A DNA stretch of 64,000 nucleotides from positions 1 to 64,000 of the forward strand of contig BDIU01000021.1 of assembly GCA_002118135.1 (NCBI GenBank), read 5' to 3'. The position numbers and the translations under genes are program-made. This DNA is from Trebouxia sp. TZW2008. Its lineage: Eukaryota; Chlorophyta; Trebouxiophyceae; Trebouxiales; Trebouxiaceae. Position 1 is the stretch's first letter, and every line of letters begins with the position of its first letter. The notes below the pieces were generated by a model. That model was not told where the DNA came from and searched no databases. It was given only the letters and a program-made list of their open reading frames with translations. This document shows positions 1,580 through 48,991 of this stretch, piece by piece.

Positions 1580-4500
1580 CTATACATCAGCGCTGCGCTC
1601 ACCGACAGCATTGCTGTCATGACCACCAATGGCTGCATCAATGCTGCTCTCATTGTGTGGCTGCAATGGCTGCCCTGGTGCCTTCACTTCCATGACATTT
1701 TGCAACAGCATGTGCTGATTTTGATCCTCATCTGCGCTGGGTGGCACTTCTTGCAGCTGATCCTGGACTGAGACTATGGGGTCGTCAATGTGCACTACAG
1801 GGCCTCCTGTTTGCTCAATCAGACTTTGCTTCAGAGACTCAGCTGTTGTGCCACTGAGCTGACTTGCATCGTGCTGGTGGGCAGTGACAGCTTCAAAAGC
1901 AGTTGGTCGACCCTGAGCAGCATCTGCCAGGGTTTGATCATTGCTGGGCTCAGACTCCACGGCATGTGGCTGAAGGCTATCAGCTTCTAGCCCAGCTTCT
2001 CCTGCCTCAGATGACTCACCAGCTGCTGCAGCGGCTGTTGCTGGTGCCTCAGGTGACTCATCAGCTGCTGCAGTAGCTGCCACTGCCTCAGATGACTGAA
2101 CAGCTACTTCAGCGAGTTCTGGCTGCTGCAAAGGCTGAGTTGGCTCTGGGTGCAGCCCCTCTGCATTCTTAGCAGGATTTTGCTGAGCTGCTCCAGTGTC
2201 CAACTCTGGGGTTGCGGGTGCACTAGGGCTTCTGGTCAGCATAGGGTTTGCATTGACTTGATCCATGTCTGCATCTTCTTCTGCCTCAGAATCGACCTGC
2301 AGGTATTCAAAAGTCGTTTACAATCACTGTCTCGGCTAATTTGACTCGCTTTGGTCTCCTGCGCTACACTGCTTCACACATTGCAAGCCTGTCTCATGTC
2401 ACATATACACTACTCCTGAGGAGCAAGCTAGGCTGTCAGTTACCTCCCAACAGTTTGCTGGAATAACCACTTGCACTGCCATGGCCTTCTGTACTGCTGT
2501 TGAGTGCATGCCAATATGACAATCACATGCCGAAATGCCTTGCATGGCATGCTTGTGGAACGTGTGTCAGCTGAATACAGGTGACATTGCTGCAAAGCAC
2601 CTACAGCTCCTTCAGTAGCAACATCCAACTGCCTGCTTTTCTTTGTAAGCAATTTCTAGAAGACGCTGAGCATGACATAAGTGACAGGAGACATGCCTTC
2701 TGCCACAGGTGCCTTTGCAGCATGACACAGCTCCACTGAGGGGGTTCAGCTACTGTGTCTGTGCAGCAGCTGAATGCAAATCTCATTGTCCAAGAGTTTG
2801 TCAAAAATGTGGCTTTCTCAGCTTGAGCGCTGAGAGGTCACTCAAGCTGCTATTGCAATATACTAGACTGTTCGAGATTTGACCTGTGTGGCATTGCGTT
2901 CAAGCTTGTATACAGAAACGACTAGCAGCAATTACGAGAAACACAACATGCCCATATACAAACTGGACTTTGCGCTGAAATGAAATTTGACAACCTCATG
3001 GTTGGCATGCAGTGCCTCAAAGCCTCACCTTTGTCAGGAGGAGCTTGCTGTCAAGATTCAGACCTTGAAACAATTGTTTCTGGGGCAATTTGCACTCAGA
3101 AAATGCATGTGGTAGCTCACCTCATCTGCTGACTGTTCTGATGGCCTGGATAGGCTAGCACCGCGGCGCGTGTCAATGGCAGTCATCATTTCTGTCCTCC
3201 TCTCAGGATCTTGCTCTGCCAAAAGCCTGCACACCCATAGTAGAAAGGATCAGCAACATGCAGTGACAGCAGTTGGCAGTAGTGCAGCTGTGAAAGCATT
3301 GTGTCGATGCTATCTAGCAAACATGGCCTAGAGTGGCTAGCACTGTGGCGCTTGTCAATGGCAGTCATCAGCTCTATCCTCCTCTCAGGATGATGTTCTG
3401 CCAAAAACCTGTACACAGACAATAACAACAATAGGAAATGATGATCTTGATATTTTCTGGCACATGTGCAAAAGTGACTGAATCAACAACATGCACAAAG
3501 CAGCGCAACAGTCAGCAAAACCACTGCAGGAGCTGATGACTGCATTCACAATGTAAGGACAATGCAATTCAGAACTGATCACTGCATTCTGACCGCAGCG
3601 GTACCACCAAATACAAATATCTCAATGGAATCAGAAACTTTGTGGTGATCCAATCAATATTCTGGAGACAAATTACTGCAGCTTACATAAGGATCTCTGA
3701 AGTAGCACTGCCCACAAGGTTATCTGCAGCCAGCTCCTCCTTACTCCTGGTCTCAGGGCGGCTGAGAACTGCCCCTGCCTCTGCCCCACTGCCCAATTGC
3801 AGCTCCTGTAGCAGGCAAAACACTCATGAATGGACGAACAAACACATGAGTGGATGAATGATGAATCATTCAATCTATGCCTGGTCTCAGGGCGGCTGAA
3901 AACTGCCCCTGGCTTTGTCCCTGCCCCACTGCCCATTTGCACTTCATGTAGCAGACAGCACAGAAATGAAACGAGTAAATGAACGGGCACATGAACAAAC
4001 AAACAAACTGATGAGCGAGCACTGAACATACGAGAAGGACTCAAGGGCAAGTATACTCAGCGAGCTGCCAAACATGCATAATGCAGTCTTTGCGTATAGT
4101 TGTGAAGAAGTGACAATACTCGTATAGACTCCGCTATTTTCAGTCTGCAAGCTCTCACACATGCATGACTCTGTCCTTGTTCAGAAAAAATCGACAGACT
4201 GACAATGCTCACCCTGATCAAAGCAAGTCTGGTCTGCAAGCCCTCATACATGCGGGTCTGTGCCGCTCGGCCTCTGAGCAGCCTCTGCAGCACTATTGCT
4301 GCTGCATCCATCTTGATCTTGACTGGGTCAGCTGTCAACAGAGCTGCCATGGGCGATGCAGTGCCGGCCCTGGCTGCACATGCACAAATTCACAGTCAGA
4401 ATACATCATTACGTCCTTGGAATACATCCTCACACTGCAGGTGTTAACGCTTCAGTGCTGCCATCTAGTGTAGCAATCAGCAATGAGTCACATACACAGA

Positions 4501-7500
4501 CACTTGCTGTCTACGGGAAGCTTTCAGGCATGCATACTAGCTGCTTGTGTTGCAGGCATATGTGCATTTGCATCATGGCATACATTGCTGACTGCATTTT
4601 GTGCATCTGCTTATCTTGACAGCGAATTCAAAGCTGCAATAAGTAGATAATTGGCAAGGAAACAGGGATAGTAGAGAGACATAGGGAAAGTCCCAATCTG
4701 GTGAATGCATGCATGGACACTTGTATGATGGGTAACAAATCGCTCAATCTGATGAGTGTTTCAGCAGAGACCAGAAGCCGCAAAATAGTGTTATGCATAG
4801 AGCAGCAAGCAAGTCAAGTGCTGGTCAGCTTGTAAGATGAAAGACAATACATTCAGCAAGACTCACTTCTTTACATCGGTGTTGGTGTTCTGGTGTTGGG
4901 CTACCATGCTTTCAGGCAACTCAGGCTAAAAACAACAATTATTGACAGGAAAGCGAGATTTCAGATGAGCTGGACCACTCTCCATGCTCTGACACACTTA
5001 CACTTGGTCCTGGACATGCGCTTGAGCCTAAACGTCGACCTCATGGTGGCTGCCATGGTTTTAACATCTGCCTTGGCCGAACCTGACAATCAACAACAAA
5101 AGACAAGGCAACAAATACTGACCCAGCAATCTGGCACACTTACATTTGGTCCTGGACATGCGCTTGAGCCTAGAGGTTGCCGACATCTTGGCTGCCATGT
5201 CCTTGGCATCTGTCTTGGTTGAAACCTGGGTGTTGTAGGACGCTCCCATATCCCCAATGGTCCCGTTCTGGCGGCTGGCGTCCAGCAGGTTGGCGATCAA
5301 GGCTAGGTCTGCTGCAACCTTCTCCTCTCTGTGCTGCAGATAGTTCAGCTTGTGTGTACTGCCAGGGGCCTGCGGTAAGAGGATCCTTGTGTCAATGGGA
5401 GCCAATTAGTGAGATCTGAGACTCAGCAGATTGGCAATCAACGCTAGGCCTGATGCAACCTTTCGCTCCCTGTGTTGAGGTAGTTCAGCATATGTACACT
5501 GCCAGACGCCTGTAAAGAGCGCACCCAGTCAGTGCATCCTGCAGCTTGTCTGTGCAACAGGTAATTTTTACCTGCCCAATTTGTTTGTCTCTGGAGAAGT
5601 TGCACAAGTGTTGCACAGTCTAAATGCTTGACCAGCTTGCAAAGAAGTCAAACACAGGTTTGATCTGAGACTGCATGCCATGTGCAATAATGCAAGCCAT
5701 GAAAATGTCAGACCGTCGAAACAACATATCAAAGCAATGGCAATGCACCTAGACTTTTGACCTCAGCTGTCTCTGTGGCAAGCTCGCTTCCAAATCCAGC
5801 AGCTCAGCATATTTGCTGGGCTGAAAGGGCCTGGTGTCAATGCGCTGCAGGTGATAAAGTGAACATCCCAAGACGATGAACGCGACAACGCACCTGAACT
5901 TTTGCCATCAGCTGCCTTTGTGGCAAGCTGGATTCCAAGTCCAGCAGCTCAGCATACGTGCTGGGCTGAAAGGGCCTGGTGTCAATGCGCTGCTCCACAG
6001 GGCGAGTGTCAGGGAACCTGCCCTCCCTTTGCATGGGTGCATACACCCTGCTGCTATACTGACTGTACTTGTCAATGATGTCAGGCTTGTAGGCCTTGTC
6101 CGGGCTGCGCTGGGACCTTTGAGCATCCTCAATATGCAGAATGGTGCTGACTCTTTGCCTGTGAGCAAGAGAGCCATGTGGGCAACAAAATTGACTTGAA
6201 GACTCTCTGCATATTGTCAGCTCACATTGGATTGTGCGCCTAGCAGAACAATGGCACAGAATACTGCGCTGCAACCTTGAGGCTCAACTCAGACATCAAA
6301 GCTGGATTGACAACATGAAGGGCATCAATGATGGGGTAAAGCGGCTTGTTGTGATGAGGCACGGAGGTGGCTGCATGACATCACATGCAACAAAGCAGGG
6401 CACACCAAGCCAAGCTTGTCATGAGAGGCAGCATGATAAACACAAACAGCACAAGTGTCTCAGCACAAGGCATGGCTGTAACTTGACGCACCTGTGTAAG
6501 TAAGCAAGCTTCTGCTGGACCTCAGCTGATCTACAAGCCCTGAGGGCAGCAATGCGCTCACTGTGGTGGTTCTCAATTTGCTCTTCCCTTTGGTGCAAGC
6601 TCTTCTCAAGCTTGACCAGCCTTGCATCCTGCAGGCAACAGCATCAGCACTGTCAGGAAGTGGCTGTCAGGCTAATGCACGTTGTTTACCGAGGGTCTCA
6701 CAGCATGGTCAAAATTTTGTAAGGCACACAGGCCAAGACACTGGTGCAGCATTGCATGTGGAGCGAGTGTTTGCACTATATTGTGATGGGCTGCAGTGCT
6801 GAGGCGCTGAGTGTGTGCACTGTATTCTGTTGACCTGCAGTGCTGTGGTAGGCCATAAAATTGGCAGCTTGAGTGCGCGCTGTCTGCTGACAAGCTGCAG
6901 TGCTAGACATTCCGCTTTTACTGCTACAACAGGGCATGCAGCACCTGTGTGGCTTGCAAAGTTGCCTCCCTGTCTGCCCATTCTTGAGCCTCCCATGCCT
7001 CTAGCAGTTGCTGCCTCAAAGGCAGGCGCTGCAGGTCATCCAGAGGGGGCAGGGCAGCTTCAAAGGCCCTTTTCACCCTGCGCTTCTCAATCTCCTCAAC
7101 CTCACTGAGCCCCACAGGCAAGCCATTACCAAAGCTGAGGTCCTTCAAGGCCAACAGCTCAGGCCCTTGACAGTGGTGCCTAGCAGAAAGGTACTGCTGC
7201 TTGGCAGATGGCTGATCAGGCACCACATGCTCCACATCCCAAGGCGTGGTCTGTGCCTCGCTTTCCCTGTAATCTGACTGTGTGCCGACTGTGCGTGAGG
7301 GTGGCTCTTCCTCCTCAGGCTGTGCAGTGTCTGCATCTGCTTCTGCAGCTTCTGGTAGCATGTGCAGGCTGTAAATGTCTGGGTGATAGACTCCAGGAAC
7401 CAACAAAGGTCTCCTGCTGTACAGGTAGCGCTGGTTCCCAGACACAGCTGTTGACAGGCTGGCTGCGGCGAGCTCGGCCTTGCTGCTGTGGTGCTCTGCA

Positions 7501-8346: not shown

Positions 8347-8429
8347 AATCGCCAAAAAGTCTTTTCTGATCTTACTCTCGCTTGCTAGGTTGGTACATGC
8401 GTTTCTAATTCGAACTGACTGAGCAGGAA
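8347..8429. promoter_or_regulatory. 83-base divergent promoter between CFAP91 and APH-1
   Basis: The two predicted start codons face away from each other with only 83 bases between them. The interval must contain both 5' UTRs and any shared core promoter unless one start is wrong. No clear TATA box is visible; it includes TTCTGATCTTACTCTCGCTTGC. Its existence is an inference from the two gene models. Confidence 0.45.
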
Positions 8430-10425: not shown

Positions 10426-11059
10426 CATATACGTGTGATGATGCTCTATTGACCGTTACATGCAATACATGTATATTGTGTGCTGTCAATTTCACAAGTT
10501 CCAAAGTTTGACAGGCAGTGATTTTCGTCCTGCCAGACCATGATGTTGACTTTGCGGAGTGGACATCACGTCTGAAACAAGGACCACTTTGACATAATGA
10601 AAGCTGCATTTGGTTTGGGCTGTCTGTGTGCTGCAAAGCTGGTATGGTGTCTGATGCTTATGCTTGAAGTTGCTCGACTAGTCGCGGGGGCGCCCGTTCG
10701 AACGCCCAACGGCGCAGACTTTTCTAGTTTCTTACCTGGTTTCTTACTCAACTGGCATCCTAAAGCCCTGGTTTCAGAGCCATTCGGGTTCGACTTTTGA
10801 TGACATCAATCGTGACATCAACCCGAACGTCAACGAACTCGAGAGCTGATGCAAATTCGCTCAAAGATGGTGACGATCGCAGGCGTATCCGGTCAAATTC
10901 CCACATGCGCTGCTCTGCTCTGCAGTGCACACTCGGCGTCCTTGACAACGACAGAGGCTGGTGACCTGCAACTGCCTGCCGTGCAGTTCGATCTCAAAGT
11001 CTTAATTTACGTTGACCGAGTACAGGCCTTGCGTCCGCCATATCAGCCCATCTTGCAGC
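10426..11059. other. intergenic between APH-1 and P450
   Basis: Holds a 67-codon open frame at 10597-10800 with a hydrophobic start (KAAFGLGCLCAAKLVWCLML) that I do not accept as a gene. There is also a GC-rich patch at 10680-10720 with a small hairpin (GGGCG and CGCCC around CCGTTCGAA), and a short run of GACATCA/AACGTCAAC words at 10800-10835. It presumably contains the P450 promoter; no TATA box was recognised. Confidence 0.5.
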
Positions 11060-14000
11060 ATGTTGGACCTCACAGCAGGCACCGTGTATGCAATCGTGCT
11101 GTTGGTTACCCTGGTGAGGATCGAGTCTGTCTTGTACCCAGCACTTAGCGGATTCCTTGTTCTCGATTTGTGCCGAGTCACGTTCTTGACCTGCTTGCAT
11201 GCCATAGCGAGCGTTATGAAGTGCCATCTTCTTGCCTTCTGGCAGGTCGTCAGCTGGTGTAGCAACTGGGAGAACCGCTGGAAGTACAGGCATATCCCTG
11301 GACCAGGCTACAAGTTTCCTTTGGGAAACATGATCACCATCCGGAAGAAGATGATGTACAGGGCAAATGCTGACTGGCATGCTGAGTATGGCGATACTTT
11401 CAAGCTTTTCTTTGCCCGTCAGCCAATGCTGGTCACTTCAGGTCAGCCTCTGTGCAATCATTTGCTTTTGTGCAAAGTGACTTGCGACAGCAAGCTTATA
11501 TTTCTTCAACTGGATGTGCTCAAGCACAACTGTGCGTCTCAAAGACATGATGACCATCAGCACAGTCAAGCCTTGTTGTTGTGGTTAGCATGCCTAGCAT
11601 CACTGCAATCATTAGCATTATTGTCAAACATATCACAAAGGAATGCTTTGCTATTTGCTATGAAGACCATAACTTGCTTGTGGCTGCAGATCCTGCCCTT
11701 GCCCGGCAAGTCACCGTCAAGGACTTCAGCAAGTTCCACGACAGGTTTCTGCTGAACATCAAGAAGTCTCTGTACACAGGATCGCGCCTAGAAGCTGACA
11801 AAGCCAGCATCATTGCAGCAAAGTAAGACAACGTGTTAGCGCTGCATGTTGCGTCAGGGTCTGAAGACTGTTGGGTCATGCTGTGTGCCCAGTGCCTCTT
11901 TTGTCAACACCTCTGCCCTCTCTGCATGACAGTCACTGGTAAGTGGATGGCATGGGCCCAATTTGTTGTTCACGATGTTGTGTCAATGTTGATTAATCTC
12001 GACGTCAGCTTTTTGTTGAAGAATATGCTGTCATTAAGAACTGCAGGTGCAACAGCATACACTTGTGTTGCTGCGTCTCTGACTGTCTTGTAAGCACTTG
12101 CTGGGGGTTCGCCATGCAGTATTTTTATCTCACCAAGTCTCCAAAAGCCTTTACTCACAGTGCAGTGTTTGCAGGGGTGCGTACTGGGGCAGCCTCAGGG
12201 CCGGCATGCAACCCATGTTCCATAACGTCCACCTGGCAGCCTATGCAGAGGTCATCAACCAAGCAGTGACAGACCTGATCGACAACCTGCAGCCTTTTGC
12301 CAAGTCAGGGGAGCAGGTAGATATGCACCGACAGCTGGGACGTATGACAATGCAAGTCATTGGAGCTGCAGCATTTGGGTAAGACGTTGCCCTCTGTATT
12401 TCAGTTTGTGGTTCAGTGTGTGGTTCAGTGTGTGGTTCAGCGTTACAAGACAGGAGAGCATATGCACTGCCACTTGGAGCATATGAAAATGCAAGTCATT
12501 GGAGCTGCAGCATTTGGGTAGGATCATCGCTTCTGCAATTTAGAGTGTGATTCAGTGTTGCAAGATGGGGCAGGTGAACATTCATCAACATTTGAGGCGC
12601 ATGGAAATGCAAGTCATTGGTCCTGCAGCCTTTGGGTAACATTGCTAATCATGACAGGTTCAGCACTTTGCTGCAGCTGCATGTTGGTTTGTCAATTGCT
12701 GCAGCAACAGCAAGCGTTGGCGCTTGCATGTCAATATTTCTGCAGTGTTGTTGTTTCCATGTCATGTGCCACCAGGCTTGTTGGTCAACTTCCTTGCAGT
12801 TTCGGTGAATATGGTCCAATTTTAAGGATAGCATGCATGTCTCTCATGTTGCAGTTGTTTACATCATGCAAGACACGATAGTTTTGGATGCAGGGTCAAG
12901 TTTGACACTCAGACTGCAGCAACTGGGGATGACGTGAATCTGGTGAAAGCAGCAAAGTCCTTCTTTGAGAACAGCAGGCCTTCATTCTGGAACCTGTTGG
13001 CTTTCATCACGCCACAGTGGGTTTTGCCTCTGCTCAGAGTGCTGGCGCAAGCATTCCCCAGCCAACCACAGCTTGGAAGGGAGTTCTCGGTTGCTACCAT
13101 GTTTGAAGCTTCAGACTGCTTGATTGAGGTACGGTGCGCTGTGCTGTGCTTTGCTGTGCTGTAAAACATGCTCACATTGGCATGTGCTGCTGCAATTGCA
13201 TCTTGTCAAGTGCAGTATCAGACAGACGTTACTTGAAACTGACGTGCAGATTGTCCAGATAACAGCACTCGATAGCTTCAGTATTGCAGAACACACAACT
13301 TGGCTGCCTGTCCTGTTTATCCCTTGCACATCGCCTCATGGCAGCCACGTTGTATCATACTCGGAACATGACAACACCATCGGTACCATGCATGGTCATG
13401 TGGAAACCATCAATGTTTGTGTTGACATGATGGTCAATGCTTTGCTTTGAGTCATTGTAATATTACGAGTTGATGTGTTGACTTGATAGTCAATATGTTG
13501 CAGAATGCAAGGAAGAAGTATTTCAAGGGCAGCAAGGCGCCAGCTGCTTGGAAGTGGTTCAAGGATGACCCACGCAACCCCCTCAAGGTTTGTTAACACT
13601 CTCTGTAGAGAAATCTGGAAGGTGTATGTGAAACCTCTGCAGTCTTGGGTGGCATGGAGTGGCATTGCATAATTGTCAGTATGAGCCATCCTGTTGTTTT
13701 TCTGGCCAAGGGCATTTTCACCAGCTTTTAGCATCTTGGACTTGTCTCTTCTTGCCATCCCAGTCTGCTGCATCACCCATCATCCAACAGCGCACTGTTG
13801 CCATAGTGCTTGCATATACATGGCAGTTGCACCTTTTGTTATGTCCAAACAGGCAGAAAAGTGTGACTCGTCTTGTGCCCCATTGTAGGATTCAGTACCT
13901 GCAGAGAGCAGCGTCATCTCTACACTGATGAGGGCCAACAACAAAGCCAGCGGAACCAACTTCACTCACATGTAAGGCCACACTCAGTCACTGACCACGA

Positions 14001-16556
14001 CTGCTTGATGCCCACCTGAGTGCCTGCACAACTCAGTTGTACAGTTTGGCATGCCTGCATTTGTGTGTACAGTTACTTTCTTCCAAACAATCGCACAGGT
14101 GCAGCATGAAATGTCCCTTGTTGCAGCATTACTGCTATCAGAAGCAGCAGCATGAATGTCTCAACTGTACAGATGTGCTGACAGTCAAAGACTGCATGCT
14201 CAACTGAGAGTGTTGACGGTGTGCGCAGACAGATTGCTGGGCAGACAAGTGCAATGATGCTGGCAGGGTACGAGACCACAGCCAGTGCTTTGGCTTTCAG
14301 CATCTTCTTGCTTGGCAAGCACCCTCATGCACAGAAGCAGCTCCTGCAGGAAGTGGATGCATTCCAGGTACCTTTTAACACATCGTACCATAATCACATT
14401 ATCATTTGTTCCATAGTGCATAAGGCTTTGTTACATCCTCATAATGCGCCAACCAGCCCAGACGCTGCGCTTTCTAGAGTGTATGCTCACCCCATGTACA
14501 TGTTGCATGCCAAAAGCATGCACACATAACAGTGCATCTACGTCAAGAGGCATCAGAGGGCTGATATTGTGCAAAGCATGGCTTGTACATGCATGCTGTT
14601 GTCCCAGTGCGCCTTGGGACAATGCTGCAGCAGTTGCTTGATGCTGCTCACATAAGACCCCAAACCACACAAAGCACAGATCAGATTAGGTCATAGCAGT
14701 GTGTGAAGCACAGCCCGATATCTCTGTGCAAGTGAGATGCATGGCAAACATTACTGTCTGCTCAAGCTTTGTGTTTGCCTACCAGGGTGTGCTAGGGTAT
14801 GACAGCCTGTCTGAGTTCCCATACACGGCGGCAGTCATCAATGAGACGTTGCGCTTGTTCCCTCCACTGCCCGCCTTGCTGCGTGAATCATTGCAAGATA
14901 CTCAGGTGACTTTTGCTGCATCATCTTTCTTTGCGTATTGGAGCTGCCTAGTACTGAAGTGAAGCAATGCATTCATTTTGATCTCTTTGTGATCAAGTTG
15001 GTGTTCCTGCATTGACTTGGGCATGCGACATGCCAGCTGGCTCTGTTTTACACTGTGTATGTCTGGATCTACAGCTGATCCAAGGCCTTGTTCATGAAGT
15101 AGTAGCAGCTGAGGCTGCGTTCCGATGTGATTCAAGTATGGGTGCATATTTCCTAGACTATGCTTCACAGTGGGGGCTGACCACATTCCATGGGGCGTCC
15201 TAGTGCAGATCAATCTGTGGACTCTGCATCGCAATGAGAAGCAATGGCAGGAAGCAGCACAAACAGAGGCCAGTCTATACCTGGTGCAGTATATCTGAAT
15301 CAGTTTATATCTGGTTGACATATATATAGTGATGTCGACAGTTTTCACAAGGCAAAATGAGCTTTGATGTGGTCTGTCAAGTCTGTCAATGGTGTGCTTC
15401 ACAGGTGGGAGAGTACTACATTTTTGATTTGCCTCCAGTAAAGATCAGTTTGTGGGCCGTGCATCACACCGAGAAATAATGACAGCGTGCAGAAGCATTG
15501 CAATCAAATTCGGTGTGGCATGTCCAGTCTGCGCTTGTCCACTCTGTCGGTGTGTTTCACAGGTGGGGGGATTACTTGTTCCTAGGGGCACTCCAGTGCA
15601 GATCAGTCTGTGGGCTCTGCACTGTCATGAGAAGTAGTCTGTAATGAAAAGTAACGACAGGGTGCAGAAGCTTTCACTGCAGAACGAGGTCTGGTATGGT
15701 CTGTCAAGTCTGCGCTTGTCAACTTTGTTGATGTGATTCACAGGTGGGGGATTACTTTATTCCCAGGGGTACTCCAGTGCAGATCAATCTGTGGGCCTTG
15801 CACCGCAACGAGACGTACTGGCAAGACGCAGAGGCTTTCAAGCCTGAGCGGTGGCTTGGGGACAAGACAGGAGGGGACAAGAGCGGAGGCATGGCTTACC
15901 TGCCCTTTGGTGCAGGGCCTCGCATGTGCATTGGCATCAAATTAGCAGGTGAATCTGATTGGACTTTTCATGTTGCTGTCATGCATGTGTGCATGCGTGT
16001 GTGCAAAGTGAGGTCTGTTGCATGGGCATTGGCATCAAGCTAGCAGACAAGTGACTGAGGCTACCTATCGCTCTGTGTTGCATGCATGTATCTGCTTTTA
16101 GCATGTGCTGGTGGAACTACCCACAGTACTGTTGCGCACGCATACCTCCAGCAGCACCTTGTGCCGGCTGCATCTACACTGACTGTGTTTGTACTGCCAC
16201 AAGGACTGTCCTTAATGCACGCATAGATCGCTAGCTTGCGCTATTGAAACATGCATTGCTTTAAGCTAGTAGGCATCCTGGCTGCAGTAGGGCTGTCAAA
16301 TAATGCCTCCAGTCATGCTGCAGTCATAACTTAGCTGACCTTTGCACAAAATTGCCACAAAAAAGTATGCTGTACTCAAGGCAGTCTATCTGTATGCGCA
16401 GTTGAAGAAGCAGTCATAGCACTGGTGCGCCTGTACCAAAGCTACACTTTTGAGCTGACAGATGACCTGTTGACGAAGCCTGTGGAGTTGAAGCAGACTG
16501 TGACATTGACGCCCATGGATGGTGTCAATGTCACTGTGGTACAACGCAGGCAGTGA
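11060..16556 (+). CDS. cytochrome P450 monooxygenase, complete
   Basis: Membrane-anchored haem-thiolate monooxygenase; the substrate cannot be told. Eleven exons with perfectly closing phases give 535 aa: 11060-11113, 11246-11441, 11690-11822, 12175-12378, 12894-13128, 13504-13587, 13889-13971, 14229-14367, 14786-14905, 15744-15948, 16402-16556. An N-terminal hydrophobic anchor (YAIVLLVTL) is followed by the proline-rich hinge HIPGPGYKFPLGN. The I-helix has AGYETTA, the K-helix ETLR in INETLRLFPP, the meander FKPERW, and the haem loop FGAGPRMCIG with the ligand Cys. All catalytic signatures are intact. Overall it resembles the CYP711/CYP3-clan type (inference). Exon 10 has three upstream partial copies and exon 4 two downstream ones. 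Confidence 0.95.
12407..12442. repeat. 12-base tandem repeat, three units
   Basis: TGTGGTTCAGTG repeated three times (last unit ends CG), directly downstream of the exon 4 donor of the P450 gene and just before the donor-side exon copies. Confidence 0.85.
12485..12645 (+). repeat. two donor-side copies of P450 exon 4
   Basis: The last about 35 bases of exon 4 (encoding MQVIGAAAFG and then GTAAGA) recur at about 12489-12523 followed by GTAGGA, and at about 12606-12640 (encoding MQVIGPAAFG) followed by GTAACA. Each is preceded by a version of GGAGCATATGAAAATG or GAGGCGCATGGAAATG. Both retain a GT at the homologous donor position. Confidence 0.85.
15125..15640 (+). repeat. three acceptor-side copies of P450 exon 10
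   Basis: Three partial copies precede real exon 10 (15744-15948), with starts at about 15171, 15405 and 15563. Each carries about 45 bases of intron ending in TTCACAG plus about 75 bases of exon start. Translations run VGEYYIFDLPPVKISLWAVH and VGGLLVPRGTPVQISLWALH, against VGDYFIPRGTPVQINLWALH in the real exon. The second and third keep acceptor and phase and end at a stop right after a Glu-Lys pair. The first has lost one G at its acceptor, which shifts its phase. Confidence 0.9.
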
Positions 16557-17409
16557 ACAACATTCAAAATGGGTGTCAGTGTCACTGTGGTATAGCACAG
16601 ACGGTGAAAAACAATCAAGTTGATATGTCAGGATGCAACATACATCGTCAGGCCACACAGCCTGCTTTGACAGCATTACTGCAGCAAATCAGTGAGGAAG
16701 CCGTCAAGCTCAGTAGCTATGCTCTTGGTGCCTCTCAATGGGAGTGACGAGATCACCGAAAGCAGCTCACAATCCAGTGCAGCTTGCCAGCATGACAGAA
16801 CAATGTTGGAAATCAGCACCAGCCCTCTCAGCTTGTACGCCTTTTTCTGCTCAACATGCATGCGCGCTGTGTTATTTTTGATGTCCTTTCTGACTTTGAA
16901 TGAAATGCTGTGAGTAGGCTCGGCCATATGAGTCTGTACGGAACAACAAGTATGCCTGTTTGTCAGTTGTACCGGCTCGTTGAACAGACTTGGTATGACC
17001 GATTTTCAGTCTACTTGTAAGCCCCTAGCTATGCTTAGCATATTTCGTCCATTGCACTCAAGTTCTTCGAGACGCACCTGCACACTTCAGAGCTGCGGCA
17101 GCCACATTAGATAGCCTCAAGAGGATATACAAGCATGGTCCTCAACAAAGCTAACAACATGCGTTTCTGGGCAAATGTTCACCTCAGGGCTAGGCCTGCG
17201 TGCGACAGGTTCAGAGCTGAAGTGATAGTGTGAAGCAAAGGGAGTGTGAGGGGGTCTTGCGAGGGGTTCTAGGTGGGTGAGGAGGGGTCTGAAACAAAGG
17301 CTGGCAAGTTGGCAAATTCAAACTTGGTATGTCGAGTCGTCTGAGTCGATGTCACCTTCTAGTTGCTCACCGTGCGGACGCAATGCTGCATGCTCTGTAG
17401 CGTAAGGGC
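16557..17409. other. intergenic between P450 and ABCG gene
   Basis: Begins with a degenerate copy of the last P450 codons (about 16565-16600, repeating the GTGTCAATGTCACTGTGGT block). Nothing else coding is recognised. A purine-rich stretch of GGGAGTGTGAGGGGG type at 17235-17290 precedes the transporter start. Confidence 0.5.
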
Positions 17410-31702: not shown

Positions 31703-31739
31703 TCTTGACTATGCTGTGTTTTGTTCTGGTGGGTGGTCA

Positions 31740-31744
31740 TGTAA
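31740..31744 (+). terminator. TGTAA polyadenylation signal of the ABCG gene
   Basis: TGTAA, the usual poly(A) signal of green algae, 38 bases after the stop codon. Position and motif fit; short motifs occur by chance. Confidence 0.45.
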
Positions 31745-37256: not shown

Positions 37257-37908
37257 ACGATCAAGTATTTCGACAACACTTCAACAGGAATCGGCTTCTG
37301 TTGGCTTGCAATCACTTCAAGCGCAAAAATCTTCGAGGCGCTGAAACCTTTTTGTGTGCACCTTGCTAAGAAGCGATTCCCAATTTCCATCCCAGCTTCT
37401 CAGGCTGCTGAAGGGACACAGACAAATGTCGATGCCCGTGAACGCCTCGTCCGGGTCAATTCAGCGCGTTCCAGACCAACATGTCGCGGCTACAGGGCAT
37501 CAGGTTGTGGTGATCAGCATGACAATTCTTCTCATGCAAGTGCAGGGTTTTCAGGCACTCTGCACTAATCTGCAGACGATTTCAGCTGCCTGAGATTGCG
37601 GTTAGCAAATGCACGGACCTTTTGAGGTCGCCGCCGCGGAACAGCGACCAGAAGGCGATCTACATGAAGCGCATCGATGCATGCAAGTTGACTTTTGCAA
37701 GGCATTCAACGATTTGAATTTGCCTGATCTCATGCCAGGCAAGATGCCTCATGAGCGTCTATCCTTTGATGACGGTTTCTATCAGAAAGCGAGGTGTCAG
37801 CGGCTGCTCTTGATCAACATTTTTTGAGTGAAATAAGGCAGCGGGAGAGTCTGCTGTTCAAGGCATGCGCAGTCTGCGCAAAGTACAGAAAAGTTGATCT
37901 AGCTGAGC
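37257..37908. other. divergent intergenic region with minor open frames
   Basis: Separates EFM5 (-) and the CRAL-TRIO gene (+). A plus-strand frame of 72 codons at 37609-37827 starts with ATG and ends in LLLINIF. It matches nothing known and may be 5' UTR or an upstream exon. No repeat recognised. Confidence 0.45.
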
Positions 37909-39428: not shown

Positions 39429-40226
39429 AAGCGTTCACTGTTTACTTCTCAAAGGCATGATTACGAGACAGCTACAGACTGACGAGTTTGGTGGAACAGA
39501 GGTGCACAAAAGTCGAGAAAGTTTTTGAAAGAACGAATGCTATTTAAGGACTGGTGGCTGCCCGCACGCTGTGTTGATGCTTCCAACTTTGTCTGACATA
39601 CATACCTCGCTGCGTGAGTCATACGTTAAAACATACAGAAGACCGCCCAGTGCAGTGACCTGGTCATTGCAGTATCTGTGCTTTCAGCACCTGCTCGACA
39701 TGATGACATACAATAACAATGTTAAAATTGCCCTTGACACGTCACACCTGCTGTGCTGACTGCACCCAAATGCAATATGTAGTCGGCATGTCCTGCTACA
39801 ACACACGCGTTTGTAATGACGGCATTCAAGCATTTCACGAAACCCCATCTGACAGTACATCTCTAATGCAGTCAATGGACAAGCCGCTGCGTGACACTAC
39901 ATTCGCCATTGGAGCGCCTTCAAAAAGTTTTGCTACCCTACTGATGCATATTGTGACTCAGCCCATCCCATCATCTTTCGTTGACAGCGCTTTCAGTGCT
40001 TCTGAGATGTCTCCTTCAGACACAAGAGCTGCATCATGCAGCACAGATCGGAGCGCCTGGACAAAGCTTGAATCTATCCAGCCAATGGCCTGCACCAAGG
40101 ATCACTTGCTGCTATCAGAATAACATCAACCGAAAAGAAGGAATTGCTGGCAACAGCTTATTCATCACCCACACAGCCATGATTGCCTGTGTGCTGCCTC
40201 TCAGTGTGACCTGACACACTCCAGGG
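39429..40226. other. convergent intergenic region
   Basis: Between the 3' ends of the CRAL-TRIO gene (+) and importin-11 (-). A plus-strand open frame of 134 codons (39719-40123) has no recognisable domain and no ATG-centred context; regarded as chance. Confidence 0.45.
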
Positions 40227-43200
40227 TCAAGCATTCTGTAATTCAGCAGGTAATTGAACATCCAGCCTGCTAGGCATGATGAGGACCACCTCTGCACATG
40301 GAATCAGCCAGGGAACAAACGCTGCCCTCACACTGCTGCCTGTTCCCAGGTGTGTCCATGCGCAGAGGGCATCAGCTCACCAGCAACGCATGTGCACAGC
40401 GCAGTGAATACATAGAAGTGCCAAGTCAATACAGTATTCATTTGATTTAAGGACACTTGATATAAGGACGTTCTCGATGCAAGGACAATGCAATTAATAA
40501 CCAATCACTGCGGTTTGACTGCTGTGGCACCTAAGTAAGGACTTTTCAATATAACGGCAACTTTCATGGGAATTAAAAGCAGTTGTTACATAGGAATGTC
40601 ACTGTAGCAACAAGCAAACAGCAAGGCAAGCACAGCAGCCCTACCTCTATCAAGGCCTCTTGGCCAACAACTGATACAGCCTTCTGTGCAGCAGCGCCCA
40701 CAGCTGTGTGAAGGTCCAGGCTTCTGGGAGCGGACTGTATAGACAGCCCTGTGCGGCGCAGCTTGATCTTGTCATGCTGAGTGTCATTGATGTCCTTGTT
40801 GGCTATCAGAGTTCGCCGCTCAGCTTCTTCTTGCTGCAATAGCCAATGAAGTCACTATATCAAGCCTGAAGAGACTTGCAGCATGTTTTGACAAGCAAGG
40901 AAGAAACCAAATCTATTGCTTTAGGCGTCATAATCGCAGCGTCAATGAGCAGAAGCAGCCAGGACTCAGCTTTTGACATGAGCACCAGAAAACTTGGCAA
41001 ATATTTGCGGACATGTGCTTTGCGTCAAGGCCTTGGCAGAACGTACCAGAAACTTGTGCAGGAAGAATATCTGAGGGCTGGCATCACATTGGGCAGGGTA
41101 GACGAAGTGCAGTCTGTCACAAGAATGATCAATGTGGAGCATTGTGAGGGCATTTCCGTCAGACGTGTGCTGTGATACTGCTTTTGTTGTGATTGATGCA
41201 ACTTGCGAACAAAGCCTCCATTGGGTTTGTGATCATGCCTGTGGAATTTTTTGTGAGCGTGACTTACGGTAAACACTTTGGACTCTGCCAGGGCCCGCAA
41301 GCACACAGCCAGGATCCTTGCCAAGCGCTGTACAGCAAACATGGGAGCAGTGGCAGCTGACACCAGCAGGGTTGAGAGGCCTGCAGCGGCCATGTGCCTT
41401 TTCACCCTGCCTTGCAGCGAGCCTACTGTGCCTAGGCCAAGAATCTCTTCTAGATGCCTGCATCATGAGAGAGCGCAGTGAGAAGTTGAAGAGACGGACA
41501 GACATACCGCCAGACAGGCAAATGGGCAGCTGCCATGAGCCCTTCCGCTCTGCCATGCAGCGAGCCTACTGTGCCCAAACCGAGTTCCTCTTCCAGATGC
41601 CTGCATCATCGCAGGTTGCTGTTACAGCACGACAAGACAGATAGGCGCTGCACGGCAAACATGGGGGCTGTGGCAGCTGACACCAGCAATGTAGAGAGGC
41701 CTGCAGCTGCCATGTGCCTCTTGACCCTGCCTTGCAATGAGCGCTTTCAAGTTTTGCTGTGGGGACTTCTGGCAAGCCTGTACCCTCAGATCTTATGTGG
41801 CACAGCCCTACCAGTCAGGACGCCTGACCAGGTGGAAGCAATGGCGCCCCAGCAGTCCAGTAAACAGCCTGCAGTGTCTTGGCTGTGCTGCCTTTGCCAG
41901 GCAATGAGCAATACTGCCACGTTGAATAGCTTCATGTTTACAACTGATTGCGCACTTGGTTAGAGGAACTGACCTGGTGGAGGCAATGGCAGCCCGGCAA
42001 ATCAGCAAGCACCCTTCTGTGTCTTCGCTGCTGCTGCCCATCAGGGCGAGAAACAGCATGACATAGCATCAGAAGTAGTACATTGACAGCATATGTATTT
42101 TACTTTGGACTTGCCTGGTGGAAGCAATGGCAACCCAGCGGTCCAGCAAGCGGCCTTCTGTGTCTTCGCTGCTGCTGCCCATGAGAGCGGGAAACAGGCC
42201 CGGCGCTGTGCACGCTATGACGGCTAGGGCTTCCAGTAGGTTGTCTGCCACAGTATGCAGGTGCATGGGTCCTGAGGGCTGTGTGGCTGCCACTATATGC
42301 ATTGCAGTCCTGCCACGAGCATACACCATGCTGATCATAATCCAATGAAAGCATCATCAGTGACAATGGTGATGCTAATGTTGATACTGATACCGAGCCT
42401 GATGTTGATAGTGGTGGTAATGGCGGTAATGATGCTGATCATGATAACAACTATGGCATAGTAGACCTATATATGTATGTCACACTCCATCACAAGTGCT
42501 GGGTATGTGTGGCTGAAGCCTGGTGTTGCCGAACTGGCTTGATTTGCGCATCACGGCAAGGGTGTACAGTGTGCATGTGATAGCGATAATGATGGTAGCG
42601 ATGACAGATTCAAGAACAAGTGCTAGGCATGTGTGACCCAAGTGCTCTCTTGTTGAGCAAGCTTGCTCTTGGACAGCAGGTCCATCTTCAGAGCAGACAC
42701 ATCTTGCTTGACAAACCAGGCACCTCTTCAGTACAGGCACACTTGTAGCGCAGGCAAATCTTCATGAGCAGGCGCATCTTGCTTCATATCTTGGCCTTTG
42801 AGCTGATTACAATTGACCAGAATTCAGCATCAGGACTCAGCACTCACCTCACAGCAGGAGCGAGCTGAGCCTTCTGAGTCTCTGGCAGGTCATGCTCAAG
42901 AAGAACAGTCAGCAGGGAAGCAGCAGCACTGGCGTCTGAGAGTGCGTCCATGTCCAGCGAGGTGCTTTCCTTCTTGTGCGCTGCCTTGCTGACCCTGTGT
43001 CTGGGATGGTAAGACAGCTGAATGCCACCCAGTGGTGACTGCTGCTCCTGACCTGATACAGCACAAAAGGAGTGGTGAACACTAATCCCAATTCAACTTC
43101 TCCTGATTTGTGTCTGCTGTGCAATTTGCGGGTTAGTTTGCAATGGTGAAGAGCGACTCGATTGCCTCGTCTGAACATCGGAAAGATAGTTTCCGGGCGG

Positions 43201-46200
43201 TGGTGCAGGGAGGCCGCTATTAGAGGCATTTGGCTGTCCAGTATTCGGTTATGGAAGATTCAGCTATTACAAAAACAGCTTCCAGCACTTGACAAACGGG
43301 GGTATCATAGTAGCTTCCAAGCTACGGTAAACGCAAAAAGCAACCCAACACTTACCTGTTTGGGTCTTCTGCGCATTGCAAAGGATAGTTTCCAAGCTAT
43401 GATGCAGGGAGGCAGCTATATGGGGCATTTGGCTGTCCAGCATAGCTGGTAGGGAGGAGTCTGCTGTGACACAGTAGGCCTCCAGCACTTGGAAGATTGC
43501 TGTGTTGTCTTTGCCCCTCTGTAGGATAGCCACAAGGTTGGGCAGGAAGCCCTGCACCGCAGTCAGCTTTGTCATGCAGCATGAATAAACATGTCTAGAT
43601 ACAATGCGCCTTAGCATACATACATACATACATACATAATAATGCATGCTAGTTGGGCTCAAAGGCCTTGCTAGGTACGTATAGTCACCAAGCGGCTGTC
43701 TTTGAGCAATCAAGTCTTTTCACAAGCTGGACCACTTCAAAAGCACTGATCAAAGGTGTCAGTCCTTGGCATGCTTGCCAAGTGAGTGATTGAAAGGGGT
43801 GTGTGGGTGACCAGCACTTGGAAGATAGCTGTTCGTCCTTGCACCTTTGTAGGACAGCCTCAAGGCTGGGCAGAAACCCCTGCATCACACTCTACCAAGT
43901 CATATGCCCAGCATCTATGAGTGTCAGGGTGGCTTGATTCTGCAGCCTGCCCGTGATGTGTGCGCAAAGTGAGTGAAAGGGTGGGTGCATGGGTGGCTGG
44001 GTGGGTGGGTGTGTGCGTGAGTGAGTGAGGCAGAGGATGAGTGAGTGCGTGCAGAGGTGGGTGAGTGAGTTGGTGGGTGGGTGAGCGAGTGAGAAATAGT
44101 GTGCATGTGAGCGGACGAGCAAGTGAGCAAGCAATGAAGTGAAGGAGCTAAGCAGCCAGCAATGAAGTGAGCTTGCTGATGCTTGACTGGATTTGAGATG
44201 GACATCTGGCCAGACGCTTTGACAACCACTTTGGGCAGCAAAGCTAACACAGTTCAATGCGTTCACCTGTAAGGACGTGCTCAGGCTGCTGCTAGCAGCC
44301 AAGGTGGCATTCAACAGTTTCACTGCATCTTCAACCAACACTTCCTGCTGTGCTGGGGTCCCACCCAATCCCCGCTGAAGTAAAGCATAAAGAACTGCCT
44401 GGATGTTGCGGTCCAGAATAGCCATGGCCCCCAAGCGCCCTACCATGTGGGTCAGGACGGCCATGAGGGCACTGTGGAGCCTTGAGGCAGGCCCAGAACT
44501 GCCCTCCTGGGTTGCAGCATTCCAGATCTGCAACAACAGGAACTCAGGTTTAGCACGACAGCTTGGTCCGGCATGCTGATCTGTGGCAGTGCAGCGGTGC
44601 TGGCAGCAAAGTGGCCCTGAAAGAGACTTCAAAGTATGCAGCATGTTCACCTGCAGCAGACCAGCTATGATGGCAGCAACACTGAAATCTCAGCCTGAAA
44701 ATGACAAGCTGGTGCAGCATGTTCCCTGTGCTAGCTAGTGCAGCTGTAATGGCAGGCAAATGGGGCTGAGCGTTGAGTCCAAAGCCTTCAGAACCACAAA
44801 TACCAGGTTCAGCATGTTGAAATAGCAGTCAACAAAAGCAGGCCTCAAACTAATTGAACTCAGCTGCATACACCCCTGTACTCATACAACATGCTGACCT
44901 GTGGCAGTGCAGCTGTGATAGCAGCAAACTGGGGCTGAGCTTTTGGTCCTAAAGCTTTCAGCATCACTGTCACCAGGTGCAGCAATGTCAGCCAGCAGTA
45001 AGCAAAAGCAAGCAGCACAACCAAACAGCATCAATCACAGACAGCCAGCGGGTCTCTGCACCACGACATGATGCTGACCTGTGGCAAAGCGGCTGTGATG
45101 GCAGCAAAGTGGGGCTGAGCTTTAGGTCCTAGCGCCTCCAGCATGACAGTCACCAGGTGCAGAACCCGTACCATGCTGTCCACCTCGCTCACTCTTGACA
45201 GCATTTGGAAGCAGGCACTGAAGACGTGACCGGCGTGAGCCTCTACAACTGCCATGTGCGCTTGGCAGTCTTGCTGCAACCCATATTGCTGCTGCTGGTG
45301 TGCCTGTCAAAAAGACACATTGCACTGTTGATCTACGTTGAGAGAAGAAGAGGGAAGGATCAGAGAGGATGACAGCATTTGGAAGCAGGCATTGAAGACA
45401 TGACCAACATGAGCCTCCACGACAGCCATGTGCGCTTGGCAGTCTTGCTGCAATCCGTACTGCTGCTGCTGGTGTGCCTGTCACAAAGGCACTCTGCACT
45501 TGGTGGGCAAGAAGAGAAAGGCCGACAGATCAAGCAAGGGAGATCTAGGCAGTGTAAAGTGGACAGTGAAGACGTGACCAGCGTGTGCCTCCGCAACTGC
45601 CTGCAACCCATATTGCTGCTGCTGGTGCGCCTGTGGAGCACATACATAGCAGTTTTGCATGACGGAAGAAGAACGGACAAGAAGGAGAGCAGATGGCAGA
45701 AAGGATGGTCAAGCAGGCATTGATAACAAGGCCAACAGGTGCCTCCGCGACTGCCTTGTGAGCTTGACAGTCTTGCTGCAACCCATATTGCTGCTGCTGG
45801 TGCACCTGTGAGGACCATGACACAGCGCTTCCAGGCAAGAGGAGGAAGCAGAGGACAGGGGGAGAAAATAGTGAAATGAACAGATTATGAGTCAGGAGAC
45901 TTGACCAGCTTGTGTCTTCACAACTGCCATTTGGATCTGGTAGTCTTGCTGCGACCAAACTTATGACTACTGACGCCCAAATGGAAGATGCACAGCGTTG
46001 TTTAAGGCAGCATTGAAGGAAGGGAGATGGAGGAAGTGAGTGAGAAAAGGTGACGTCAAAACTGACAGTACTTGCACGACAACTGAGGCTGCTTGCAAGG
46101 GATGTATGCCCACAGGTGATGTGTTTCACACTTGAAAATCAGCAGGCTTCATGCCAGCACAATCATGCTTGAATTCATGACAAGGCAGGCACTAAGCTCC

Positions 46201-48924
46201 TCCAACGCTGACAACACTTGGGGGCTGCAAATCCATACACAGTTGTTGTTTTGAGCGACACTGACTCAGCCAGTCAGTCATGCCAAGTTGTCATGCCAAG
46301 TTGTCGTTCCAGCACCATGGCTCAGGGTGTGAGTAATCTGAGTCATGGCTGACCTGCAGATCCTGCTCCTGTTCTTGCAGGAAGTGGGCCTGCTGCCAGG
46401 GCAGTTCCCGCAACAGCCCTGCCCCTGACAAGCCCTGCCCTTGGCCCTGATGCTGCTGCTGCAGCTGCCGGAACCTCTGAATCTGGCGCTGCATGTGTAA
46501 CTCAGCTTCTTCTGCCTGTTCCAGGGCTGAGGCCTCTTCTAGCACCACAGCAGTCATAGCCAGAACAGCCCCTAGGGCAGTGAGACTTAGCACCAGGTCT
46601 TGGACAGACATGTAGTGCACCAGTAGTGCGTATGCTCCTGGCCAATGCTGGTTGGGTAGGTCTGTGCCGCACACTCCCACTAGCCACAGCGCTCTTGCAC
46701 ACAGCAGCTGCTGCTCTGGTTGTGTTTCCTGCAGCACAACCGCATTGAGCATCTCAACTGTGACAATGCTTGTGCACACAGCAGTTGTTGCTCTGGTCGC
46801 GTGTCCTACAGCAGCAGAGCATTGGGTGCTGGACAAAGTTGTAGTGCACCAGTAGTGCGTATGCTCCTGGCCAGTGCTGGTAGGGAAGGCCTGTGCCGCA
46901 CACACCCACTAGCCACAGCGCTCTTGCACACAATAGCTGCTGCTCTGGTTGTTTTCCTGCAGCAGCATAGCACCAAGTCTTAGACAGACATATAGTGCAC
47001 CAGTAGTGCATATGCTCCTGGCCAGTGCTGGTCGGGAAGGCCTGTGCCACACTCCCACTAGCCACAGCGCTTGTGCACACAGCAGCTGTTGCTCTGGTTG
47101 TGTCTCCTGCAGCAGAACAGCATCGAGTGTTTCGACAGGCGCACTGCTGCTGCACGCAACAGTTGCGGTGCTATTTGTGTTTCCTGCAGCACAGCCAGCT
47201 CATCTTGTGGCTGTTCTCTAAAAGCACTTGCACATTAGTGCTATGTGTAGGTTAACACAGCATTCAGGAAGGAAGCATGTGCTCCTTGCTGCATAGTCCA
47301 TGCAGCTGAGCTACACATCATGCAACAAGCCACACGCAGCACACGAGGCAGGTCATTGTCAGGCCCTGTCTAGAGGCCCATGCAGACGTGGGCTACTGAT
47401 TGTTTATGTGGCAAGGATCAATCCCATGATGACTGGGGAAAGGCTCCCACTCCACAGAGTCACCTTGCCAATTAGAGTGAAGTTTCTGTTTTCATAGGAT
47501 GTTTGTGCTTCTCTATATCATCACATGACAGAGCTTTAGTAGCAAAGCAAGCAGCCAGGGCAGCTCACCGCGAGGCCCCTTTCCAGCAGCCCTTGCAGCT
47601 CATTGACATACCAGTCTGTGAACTGGATGTGCTCGCTAACATGCGCAAAGCCCTCACCAACTGCTCTATAGCAGGCCTCCCTCAACAACAGATTGGCAGC
47701 TGATGCCGGCTGTGCCTGCACACATCAATGGAGCAAGCAGTTTTAGTCTTGCGGGAAGGGAAAATGAACCCATCAAAAAGGACAGTGTAGTGCAGGTCTC
47801 AAGGGTCAAAAGTCTATGACGGTGGCACGATTGTATCAGAGTGTTGCAGGTCAACCTGCAAAGTTGCAGTGTACCCTCAACACTGTCAGGTTGGATCCAA
47901 CATACATGCAATTGTAGCTGGTACAATGTCACTCAACAGGGCTTGCTCATTGTTAGGACAATGCAATGGAAAAGCGATCACTGCATTCTGACCGCAGCAA
48001 CGCCTTTTCGAGTGGCAAATGTGACAGACACAACAGAGTCTTGCCGACCAGTGCAGTCATTCTGCAAAGCGATTGCTGTACCCGTAATTGTCCAACATAT
48101 TGCAGCATGGCATCTGCCACATGACCAGCCCCCTTCCTCAGCATACACAGCAGCAGGGTCACCCCGCACGCCCTTGGATTGTCAGCATCTGAGCCTGTGT
48201 CTGCATCCAGAGACCGTATGAAGCCCTCAGGGTCAGCCTGCAGCACATTGGGCACCTGTCAGATGTCTTCATTTGTTTGTTCACTCAAGCATTCACTACC
48301 TTCCTCCCTCCCTCCCTGGCTTTTGTGCTTGCTCACTCACTCGCTCACTCACTCGCTCCCTCACCAAAACTTTGGCTCGCTTGCTCACTCACCCACCCAC
48401 TCACCCAACCACCCAATTGGCCCACTCTCACATCGAAACTGCATGCTAGGGAGGCTGAGGAGTCCCAGCTAGGTACGTACAGGAGCAATGGACTGTCTCC
48501 AACCATTACGGTCATCAGCAAGTCTGGACCATCTGAAATCGGTGCAGAAATTGGTCATGATTTGTACATCATTGTCTGCCAGAGGTTTGCAGCACTCTCT
48601 CGGATTTTGCTTTTGTCACCCCAAAATCAAGAGCATCGCTTGAAGCACACCTGGATTGAGCTGTTCAGCAGTAACAAGCAGGGAGCTTGCACAAATTTGT
48701 GACCCTGAACTTCACCTGCCACATTTGCTTTTCTGGGAATCAGAATGTGAAGATGAGGCCAGGGTCACAGGTGTGAACAGGTTGCTTGCTTGTCACTGCT
48801 GCACAGCTTAAGACGCGCATCAACAGCGGCCTGGATGGGTACAGCCATACAGGCAGGTAGGCAAACAGACAGACAGACAGACAGACACAGACAGACACAG
48901 ACAGACACTGACAGACAAACAAAC

Positions 48925-48991
<67 letters not shown>

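What the first reader, a model, noticed from the sequence alone, without database searches (positions are those of the whole stretch)
3121..47205. Exon-edge duplication ladders across four unrelated genes
At least twelve exons of CFAP91, the P450, the ABCG gene and importin-11 are accompanied in adjacent introns by one to four partial copies of themselves. The rule is constant: upstream copies carry acceptor plus exon start, downstream copies carry exon end plus donor. That is what a 100-250-base tandem duplication with one breakpoint in the exon produces, so the geometry alone is not mysterious. What is unusual is the frequency, the iteration (up to five units) and that many copies keep splice sites, phase and open frame. 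Each gene thus contains a store of alternative, decoy or poison exons. I know of no described genome-wide system of this kind (inference).
Basis: partly seen in the sequence, partly recalled or inferred. Interest (0 to 1): 0.87.

Follow-up and report, generated by a model that had tools for sequence, protein, structure and literature searches.

The report
Decayed exon-edge copies in algal introns
In the sampled parts of this green-alga genome there are many old side-by-side DNA duplications of about 150 bases; where one crosses the edge of an exon it leaves a mostly dead partial exon in the intron, and these copies seem to have decayed less than chance predicts.

Summary
In CFAP91, a P450, an ABCG transporter and importin-11, 19 of 50 exons carry 41 partial copies close by, 40 in an adjacent intron. 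Twenty other loci of this 68.5-Mb genome, from an alga near Trebouxia, hold 187 direct and 3 inverted pairs; shuffled sequence none. Non-exonic DNA is about as affected and holds many weaker duplicates, so random tandem duplication plus purifying selection suffices. Most copies look dead: 54 of 108 have a gap that breaks frame, stops are not depleted, and the homologous proteins compared use each exon once. A functional exon store is not supported. Two things are unusual. Units are narrow (52 of 63 distances 120-210 bp; 56 of 70 with the replicate), near nucleosome size. And copies show fewer nonsynonymous differences (dN/dS 0.41; neutral 0.57-0.66), and their intron flanks more divergence, than neutral decay predicts. 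A small replicate did not show the codon bias. That anomaly is unexplained.

The parts
3121..3226 (-). CFAP91 exon with one upstream copy
   Evidence: gene model; copy
3323..3406 (-). upstream copy of exon 3121-3226 (acceptor + exon start), 86%
3880..3941 (-). upstream copy of CFAP91 exon 3687-3805, 95% over 56 bp
5004..5085 (-). downstream copy of CFAP91 exon 5144-5369 (exon end + donor), 80%
5424..5505 (-). upstream copy of CFAP91 exon 5144-5369, 85%
5753..5848 (-). downstream copy of CFAP91 exon 5894-6158, 91%
11060..16556 (+). P450 gene, 10 exons, 579 aa
12446..12635 (+). two downstream copies of P450 exon 12175-12378
15170..15636 (+). three upstream copies of P450 exon 15744-15948
16020..16046 (+). 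short downstream copy of P450 exon 15744-15948, 89% over 27 bp, donor lost
16572..16607 (+). copy of the end of the last P450 exon, past the stop codon, 83%
19056..19129 (+). downstream copy of ABCG exon 18841-19006, 84%
25185..25291 (+). upstream copy of ABCG exon 25383-25634, 85%
25766..25827 (+). downstream copy of ABCG exon 25383-25634, 84%
27685..28233 (+). four upstream copies of ABCG exon 28286-28593, 74-94%
29640..29941 (+). two upstream copies of ABCG exon 30007-30199, 89-90%
30309..30353 (+). downstream copy of ABCG exon 30007-30199 (exon end uncertain), 78%
39958..54657 (-). importin-11 gene, 17 exons
41526..41742 (-). two upstream copies of importin-11 exon 41277-41457
41828..42056 (-). 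two downstream copies of importin-11 exon 42104-42309 (exon end uncertain)
43167..43291 (-). downstream copy of importin-11 exon 43356-43551, 76%
43811..43879 (-). upstream copy of importin-11 exon 43356-43551, 86%
44581..44982 (-). three downstream copies of importin-11 exon 45079-45303
45370..45956 (-). four upstream copies of importin-11 exon 45079-45303
   Evidence: period-174 array
46773..47106 (-). three upstream copies of importin-11 exon 46354-46728, 85-92%
   Evidence: period-151 array
49676..49719 (-). upstream copy of importin-11 exon 49368-49510, 80%
52050..52083 (-). upstream copy of importin-11 exon 51709-51882 (exon edges uncertain), 91% over 34 bp
53072..53114 (-). downstream copy of importin-11 exon 53211-53334, 93%
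50122..50588 (.). intron-only tandem array, unit about 126 bp, no exon involved
21812..22017 (.). tandem array ending at an ABCG acceptor, units 74 and 148 bp, essentially intronic

Best explanation
The genome has undergone much local, direct tandem duplication of segments of roughly 120-210 bp, without regard to gene structure. A duplication inside an exon tends to survive only if in frame; one covering a whole exon is rare by geometry; one that crosses a single exon edge survives because the true exon stays intact, so the extra piece falls on the intron side. That alone yields upstream copies with acceptor + exon start and downstream copies with exon end + donor, and repeats yield ladders. 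The copies then decay as non-coding DNA. Exon-edge cases stand out because the exon partner is conserved, whereas intron-only pairs decay on both sides and soon fall below detection. Shown: direct orientation, spread over the sampled genome, edge rule, in-frame bias inside exons, decayed non-exonic duplicates, stops and frameshifts in copies. Inferred: the birth mechanism, most likely fill-in and end joining at staggered single-strand breaks about one nucleosome apart (Ku is encoded). Not explained: why exon-derived copies appear to have decayed less than expected.
For: Direct against inverted: 55 to 0 near pairs in the window, 187 to 3 in 20 loci, 46 to 0 in 5 further loci; none in Markov-shuffled sequence. 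Edge rule: 41 of 41 window copies without the opposite edge; in 20 loci up-start 28, down-end 19, interior alignment 9, whole exon 2, down-start 1; replicate 5 anchored copies as expected, 3 interior. Exon-internal duplications: 8 of 9 pairs in the loci, from 4 loci, and 2 of 3 in the window have a spacing divisible by three. Random placement on the four genes predicts 55% intron-only, 32% one edge, 10% exon-internal, 2% whole exon, so the 2 whole-exon copies of 59 are about what geometry gives. Weak intron/intergenic duplicates at 60-300 bp, score 12 or more: 67 segments against 6 and 13 at control offsets; 23 merged places at 13 or more, a few of them low-complexity or flanks of known copies. 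Coverage of exonic and non-exonic DNA alike. Unit size: 52 of 63 nearest-copy distances in 120-210 bp (window and 20 loci; replicate 4 of 7), P 2.8e-6 against the most favourable of four broad nulls. Two ladders searched against the 68.5-Mb genome match only their own place on C21 (that search scores only the best candidates). Ku matches at two loci.
Against: Pure neutral decay of the copies is rejected in the main sample. Pooled dN/dS exon against copy is 0.414 (bootstrap 0.363-0.477), neutral-copy simulations 0.57-0.66, with non-exonic pairs calibrating at 0.97-1.16. Intron flanks of the copies look 1.5-2 times more diverged than predicted. By my count, not simulated, high-identity intron-only duplicates in the four genes (two places) are rarer than the 55:32 ratio predicts. 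Near-identical copies are scarce: of 30 TRF rows with period 100 or more none reaches 95%, and among 108 exon-edge copies I see only three at 95% or more, over 30, 56 and 64 bases, so constant-rate birth does not fit. The replicate (8 copies, 104 substitutions) shows a third-position ratio of 1.44, near neutral, against 2.10 pooled, so the codon signal is not independently confirmed. The nick/fill-in mechanism is not tested by any junction.
Confidence: 0.75

Rival explanations
1. The copies are a functional store of decoy, poison or alternative exons kept by selection.
For: dN/dS 0.414, below the neutral-copy expectation; copy-against-copy dN/dS 0.571 (0.45-0.68, 48 pairs from 20 exons); acceptor AG kept in 18 of 18 and 25 of 27, donor GT in 7 of 9 and 13 of 17 anchored copies of window and 20 loci; replicate 1 of 2 and 3 of 3; exon parts better conserved than flanks.
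Against: Stop codons 20 against 20-24 expected; frame-breaking gaps in 18 of 41, 31 of 59 and 5 of 8 copies; only 12 of 110 gaps are multiples of three, though 80 are single bases, some possibly alignment artefacts; AG identity (0.89-0.91) no higher than that of the neighbouring exon bases; most partial copies reach only one exon edge; the homologous proteins compared lack them. A coding-blind function is not excluded.
Confidence: 0.08
2. The two halves of each duplication came from already diverged alleles or strains (unequal joining between homologues, or later exchange with a diverged haplotype), so part of the difference between exon and copy is older than the duplication.
For: One model gives low dN/dS with normal stop counts: simulated 0.441 and 20.4 stops against observed 0.417 and 21 in 92 copies. 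Close pairs have lower dN/dS than far pairs in a split-half test, 0.342 and 0.465, difference 0.027-0.224. It would also explain the scarcity of near-identical copies.
Against: By my own estimate, not simulated, it accounts for only part of the excess flank decay and does not explain the lack of high-identity intron-only pairs. A uniformly slow copy (0.464, 18.1 stops) is not far off. The replicate does not show the codon signal.
Confidence: 0.2
3. Assembly artefact: diverged haplotypes or unmerged contig ends placed in tandem.
For: The genome is in 527 contigs; one of the first 20 loci holds 110 N; near-identical tandem copies are scarce, as collapse would make them.
Against: Copies carry stops and frameshifts that real exons of another strain would not; one exon has seven copies; window copies are 5-26% diverged; 24 of 25 loci outside the window hold at least one direct pair. 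No reads were available to test it directly.
Confidence: 0.04
4. Intron gain by tandem duplication of an AGGT-containing exon segment.
For: Tandem duplications beside splice sites; the process is documented (PMC4974935, passages seen).
Against: None of the 14 best-scoring of 184 introns, which include all 8 above the 99% null, has its donor region aligned with its acceptor region as that model demands. Copies lie inside introns with their own splice-site remnant.
Confidence: 0.03

Closest known systems
Short tandem duplications from end joining of staggered breaks (Ku- and Pol alpha-primase-dependent in mouse embryonic stem cells: PMC5730883, PMC8355091, passages seen; rice and Arabidopsis work cited there, not read)
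   Same: Local, direct duplication, iterated, indifferent to genes; Ku is encoded here.
   Different: PMC8355091 calls small tandem duplications the commonest short (under 100 bp) insertions in the human genome; here the exon-edge class is 120-210 bp and detectable pairs cover about 14-16% of the sampled sequence. Junction microhomology could not be read at this age.
[quoted passage not shown]
   Same: Tandem duplication next to splice sites.
   Different: No new intron is made; the required geometry was not found among the best of 184 introns.
Tandem (mutually exclusive) exon duplication
   Same: Exon sequence repeated in an adjacent intron.
   Different: Copies are partial and reach only one exon edge; whole-exon copies are 2 of 59 in the 20 loci, 0 of 41 in the window and 0 of 8 in the replicate.
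Introner elements (PMC9860276, seen only as a search listing)
   Same: Repeated sequence associated with introns; nucleosome-related lengths of introners are recalled, from no call.
   Different: Copies sit beside their own exon; two ladders searched match only their own place in the genome.
Trebouxia and Asterochloris genome papers (PMC12712428, PMC11523091, PMC6652019; passages seen)
   Same: Trebouxia genome size (63-74 Mb) and GC (about 50%) as here; repeat content 9-16% reported. The Asterochloris paper mentions an array of 141-bp units at two scaffold ends.
   Different: The word 'tandem' occurs in none of the three main texts; no passage seen describes intronic exon-edge copies.

Membership tests
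Local tandem duplication by break repair | copies in direct orientation and close together | tested here: met
   55:0, 187:3 and 46:0 direct to inverted pairs
Local tandem duplication by break repair | whole unit duplicated, including the intronic part | tested here: inconclusive
   flank homology above the 95% null in 40 of 72 copies, but weaker than predicted
Local tandem duplication by break repair | junction microhomology or filler | not testable with these tools
   no TRF row of period 100 or more reaches 95%, so junctions are blurred
Local tandem duplication by break repair | end-joining machinery present | tested here: met
   Ku domain at two loci; CST and polymerases not searched
Functional exon store | intact reading frame under selection | tested here: not met
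   stops not depleted; frame-breaking gaps in 54 of 108 copies
Functional exon store | copies spliced into RNA | not testable with these tools
   no RNA of this organism held; homologous proteins compared lack them
Tandem-duplication intron gain | exon end + intron start matches intron end + exon start | tested here: not met
   no such case among the 14 best-scoring of 184 introns
Introner | family dispersed over the genome | tested here: not met
   2 of 2 ladders searched match only their own place; the other ladders were not searched
Mutually exclusive exons | complete exon copies with both splice sites | tested here: not met
   2 of 59 copies whole, 0 of 41 in the window, 0 of 8 in the replicate

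The most novel reading that the evidence does not exclude
A nucleosome-sized tandem-duplication process, genome-wide in a Trebouxia-like alga, whose exon-edge products are protected from decay: coding-dead yet evolving at about half the rate of synonymous sites and of their own intron flanks. Either the copies have a non-coding role (splice-site choice or chromatin at exons), or each duplication joins two already diverged alleles. Either would be new to me as a genome-wide pattern.
Probability: 0.2. Interest if true: 0.8.

Novelty: new variant of a known kind. Interest (0 to 1): 0.5.

Why it matters
If tandem duplication of about one nucleosome length really touched a quarter to a third of exons in this alga (19 of 50 in the window, 30 of 123 and 6 of 25 elsewhere), it is a main source of intron sequence there, a hazard for gene annotation, and a natural experiment: many partial splice sites of graded age beside working ones. 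It makes two questions testable with published Trebouxia genomes and RNA: what keeps splicing off near-identical decoys, and whether duplications form on nucleosome-spaced breaks.

Tried and rejected
Exon-specific generation: not needed once decayed non-exonic duplicates were found, though not excluded. Intron gain: no case seen. CpG hypermutability as the cause of the third-position excess: leaving out CpG-linked changes gives a ratio of about 2.05 (my arithmetic from the counts). Gene conversion between exon and copy: rejected by reasoning only, since it should raise and not lower dN/dS. Relatives' proteins carrying mis-annotated copies: 0 of 13 Trebouxia, 0 of 4 Logan and 0 of 23 other algal proteins have an internal repeat. 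Apparent lack of units under 60 bp in BLAST: probably an artefact, because BLASTN drops hits near the self diagonal (recalled); TRF does find short young units. Dropped rows: in the flank analysis, copies not aligned to within 3 bases of the edge, copies of exon 51709-51882, and the downstream copies of three exons with uncertain ends or a stop codon were left out, leaving 72 of 100; the flank simulation used 38 and 29 of these. The split-half test used 92 of 100 copies, those with at least 12 codons. The 8 replicate copies are not in the pooled dN/dS. Exon ends of ABCG 30007-30199 and 30682-30816, importin-11 51709-51882 and 42104-42309 are uncertain by some bases. Exons in the other loci come from a gene finder of mine trained on the P450 and then on its own output over the window and 20 loci, without outside proof. 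The 120-210 bp interval was chosen after seeing the data.
Full report
What is there. The window is the first 64 kb of contig C21 of a 68.5-Mb genome in 527 contigs. Best protein matches are Trebouxia species and unnamed Logan contigs at 62-75% identity, so the organism is an alga close to Trebouxia; I did not test this with ribosomal DNA. I built gene models for the four genes: P450 by hand, the others with a gene finder seeded on it, checked against homologous proteins and against solved CFAP91 chains. The importin-11 homologue P0222, from a 5.5-kb contig that I take for a transcript, covers the whole draft protein and uses every exon once.

The copies. Aligning each of 50 exons to its flanks gives 41 copies on 19 exons, 40 in an adjacent intron and one past the last P450 exon. 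Upstream copies carry the exon start, downstream copies the exon end. None carries the other edge; 33 of 41 are anchored within 8 bases of the edge. In 20 other loci 59 copies lie on 30 of 123 strongly predicted exons, with 28 up-start, 19 down-end, 9 interior, 2 whole and 1 down-start. In 5 further loci 8 copies lie on 6 of 25 exons, 5 anchored as the rule says and 3 interior.

Chance and orientation. Direct near pairs outnumber inverted ones 55 to 0 in the window, 187 to 3 in 20 loci with none in shuffles, and 46 to 0 in 5 loci. The density varies from 0 to 30 pairs per 10-kb locus, and the window (53 in 60 kb) is not special. Pairs within one array are not independent.

Why the edges. Random units laid on the four gene models fall 55% in introns, 32% across one edge, 10% inside an exon and 2% over a whole exon. 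Inside exons, 8 of 9 pairs, from 4 loci, and 2 of 3 in the window have a spacing divisible by three, as a purifying filter predicts. After masking exons, known copies and short-period repeats, the window still holds 67 weak direct similarities at 60-300 bp against 6 and 13 at control distances. Duplications thus also hit introns and intergenic DNA, where both halves decay. Detectable pairs cover 15.8% of strong exon bases, 15.2% of weak ones and 13.9% of the rest. No exon-targeting is needed.

Are the copies alive? Frame-breaking gaps occur in 18 of 41, 31 of 59 and 5 of 8 copies, some of them single-base gaps that may be alignment artefacts. Stop codons number 20 where a neutral copy predicts 20-24. 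Yet the pooled dN/dS is 0.414 (0.363-0.477) against 0.57-0.66 for a neutral copy beside a constrained exon, with a third-position ratio of 2.10 against 1.39-1.57. The method gives 0.97-1.16 on non-exonic pairs, and 1.37 and 1.82 on the copies in the wrong frames. Copy against copy gives 0.571 (0.45-0.68; 48 pairs from 20 exons). Ungapped identity next to the splice site is 0.88-0.89 over the first five exon bases and drifts to 0.63-0.72 at 40 bases; on the intron side it is 0.84 (up) and 0.69 (down) over the first five bases, then 0.60 and 0.44, falling to 0.32-0.43, with 0.26 expected at random. 40 of 72 flanks are above the 95% null, but overall flanks look like 1.5-2 times the expected divergence. 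So exon parts of copies seem to change at about half the neutral rate (my estimate), without respect for the reading frame.

Reading the anomaly. A neutral copy predicts dN/dS 0.607, a uniformly slow copy 0.464 with no trend, pre-duplication divergence 0.441 with a trend; observed is 0.417 with a trend from 0.342 (close pairs) to 0.465 (far pairs). The last fits somewhat better and also fits the scarcity of near-identical copies, but by my estimate it accounts for only part of the flank result. The replicate is too small and leans neutral (ratio 1.44). I leave this open.

Unit size. The distance from exon to nearest copy, in the window and 20 loci, has median 154 bp, and 52 of 63 values lie between 120 and 210 bp; the replicate adds 4 of 7. 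Four broad length distributions filtered through the same geometry put at most 55% there (P 2.8e-6 for the most favourable). The interval was chosen after seeing the data. A nucleosome-spaced origin is inference.

Literature. Ten paper searches, of which I saw the listings, and passages of six papers gave no description of such ladders. No whole paper was read, and most subscription papers are not in the library.

Noticed in passing
window 23306-23387 and 26918-26993, + strand: tRNA-Leu and tRNA-Val genes lie inside introns of the ABCG gene, on the same strand (ARAGORN; Rfam lists only the first at its gathering score).
   Followed up: partly
window 27004-27108: A young 54-bp tandem duplication (96%) directly after the tRNA-Val gene; with 50010-50067 (30 bp, 100%) one of the few young units seen.
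   Followed up: no
26 loci incl. window, 306 kb: TRF rows with period 100 bp or more number 30, none at 95% or above, while shorter periods include some: activity looks episodic, or young copies are collapsed in the assembly.
   Followed up: partly
window: Strong CpG depletion (observed/expected 0.38) with TpG and CpA excess (1.66, 1.65), which may point to CpG methylation.
   Followed up: no
window 48865-49016: Long ACAG microsatellite in an importin-11 intron.
   Followed up: no
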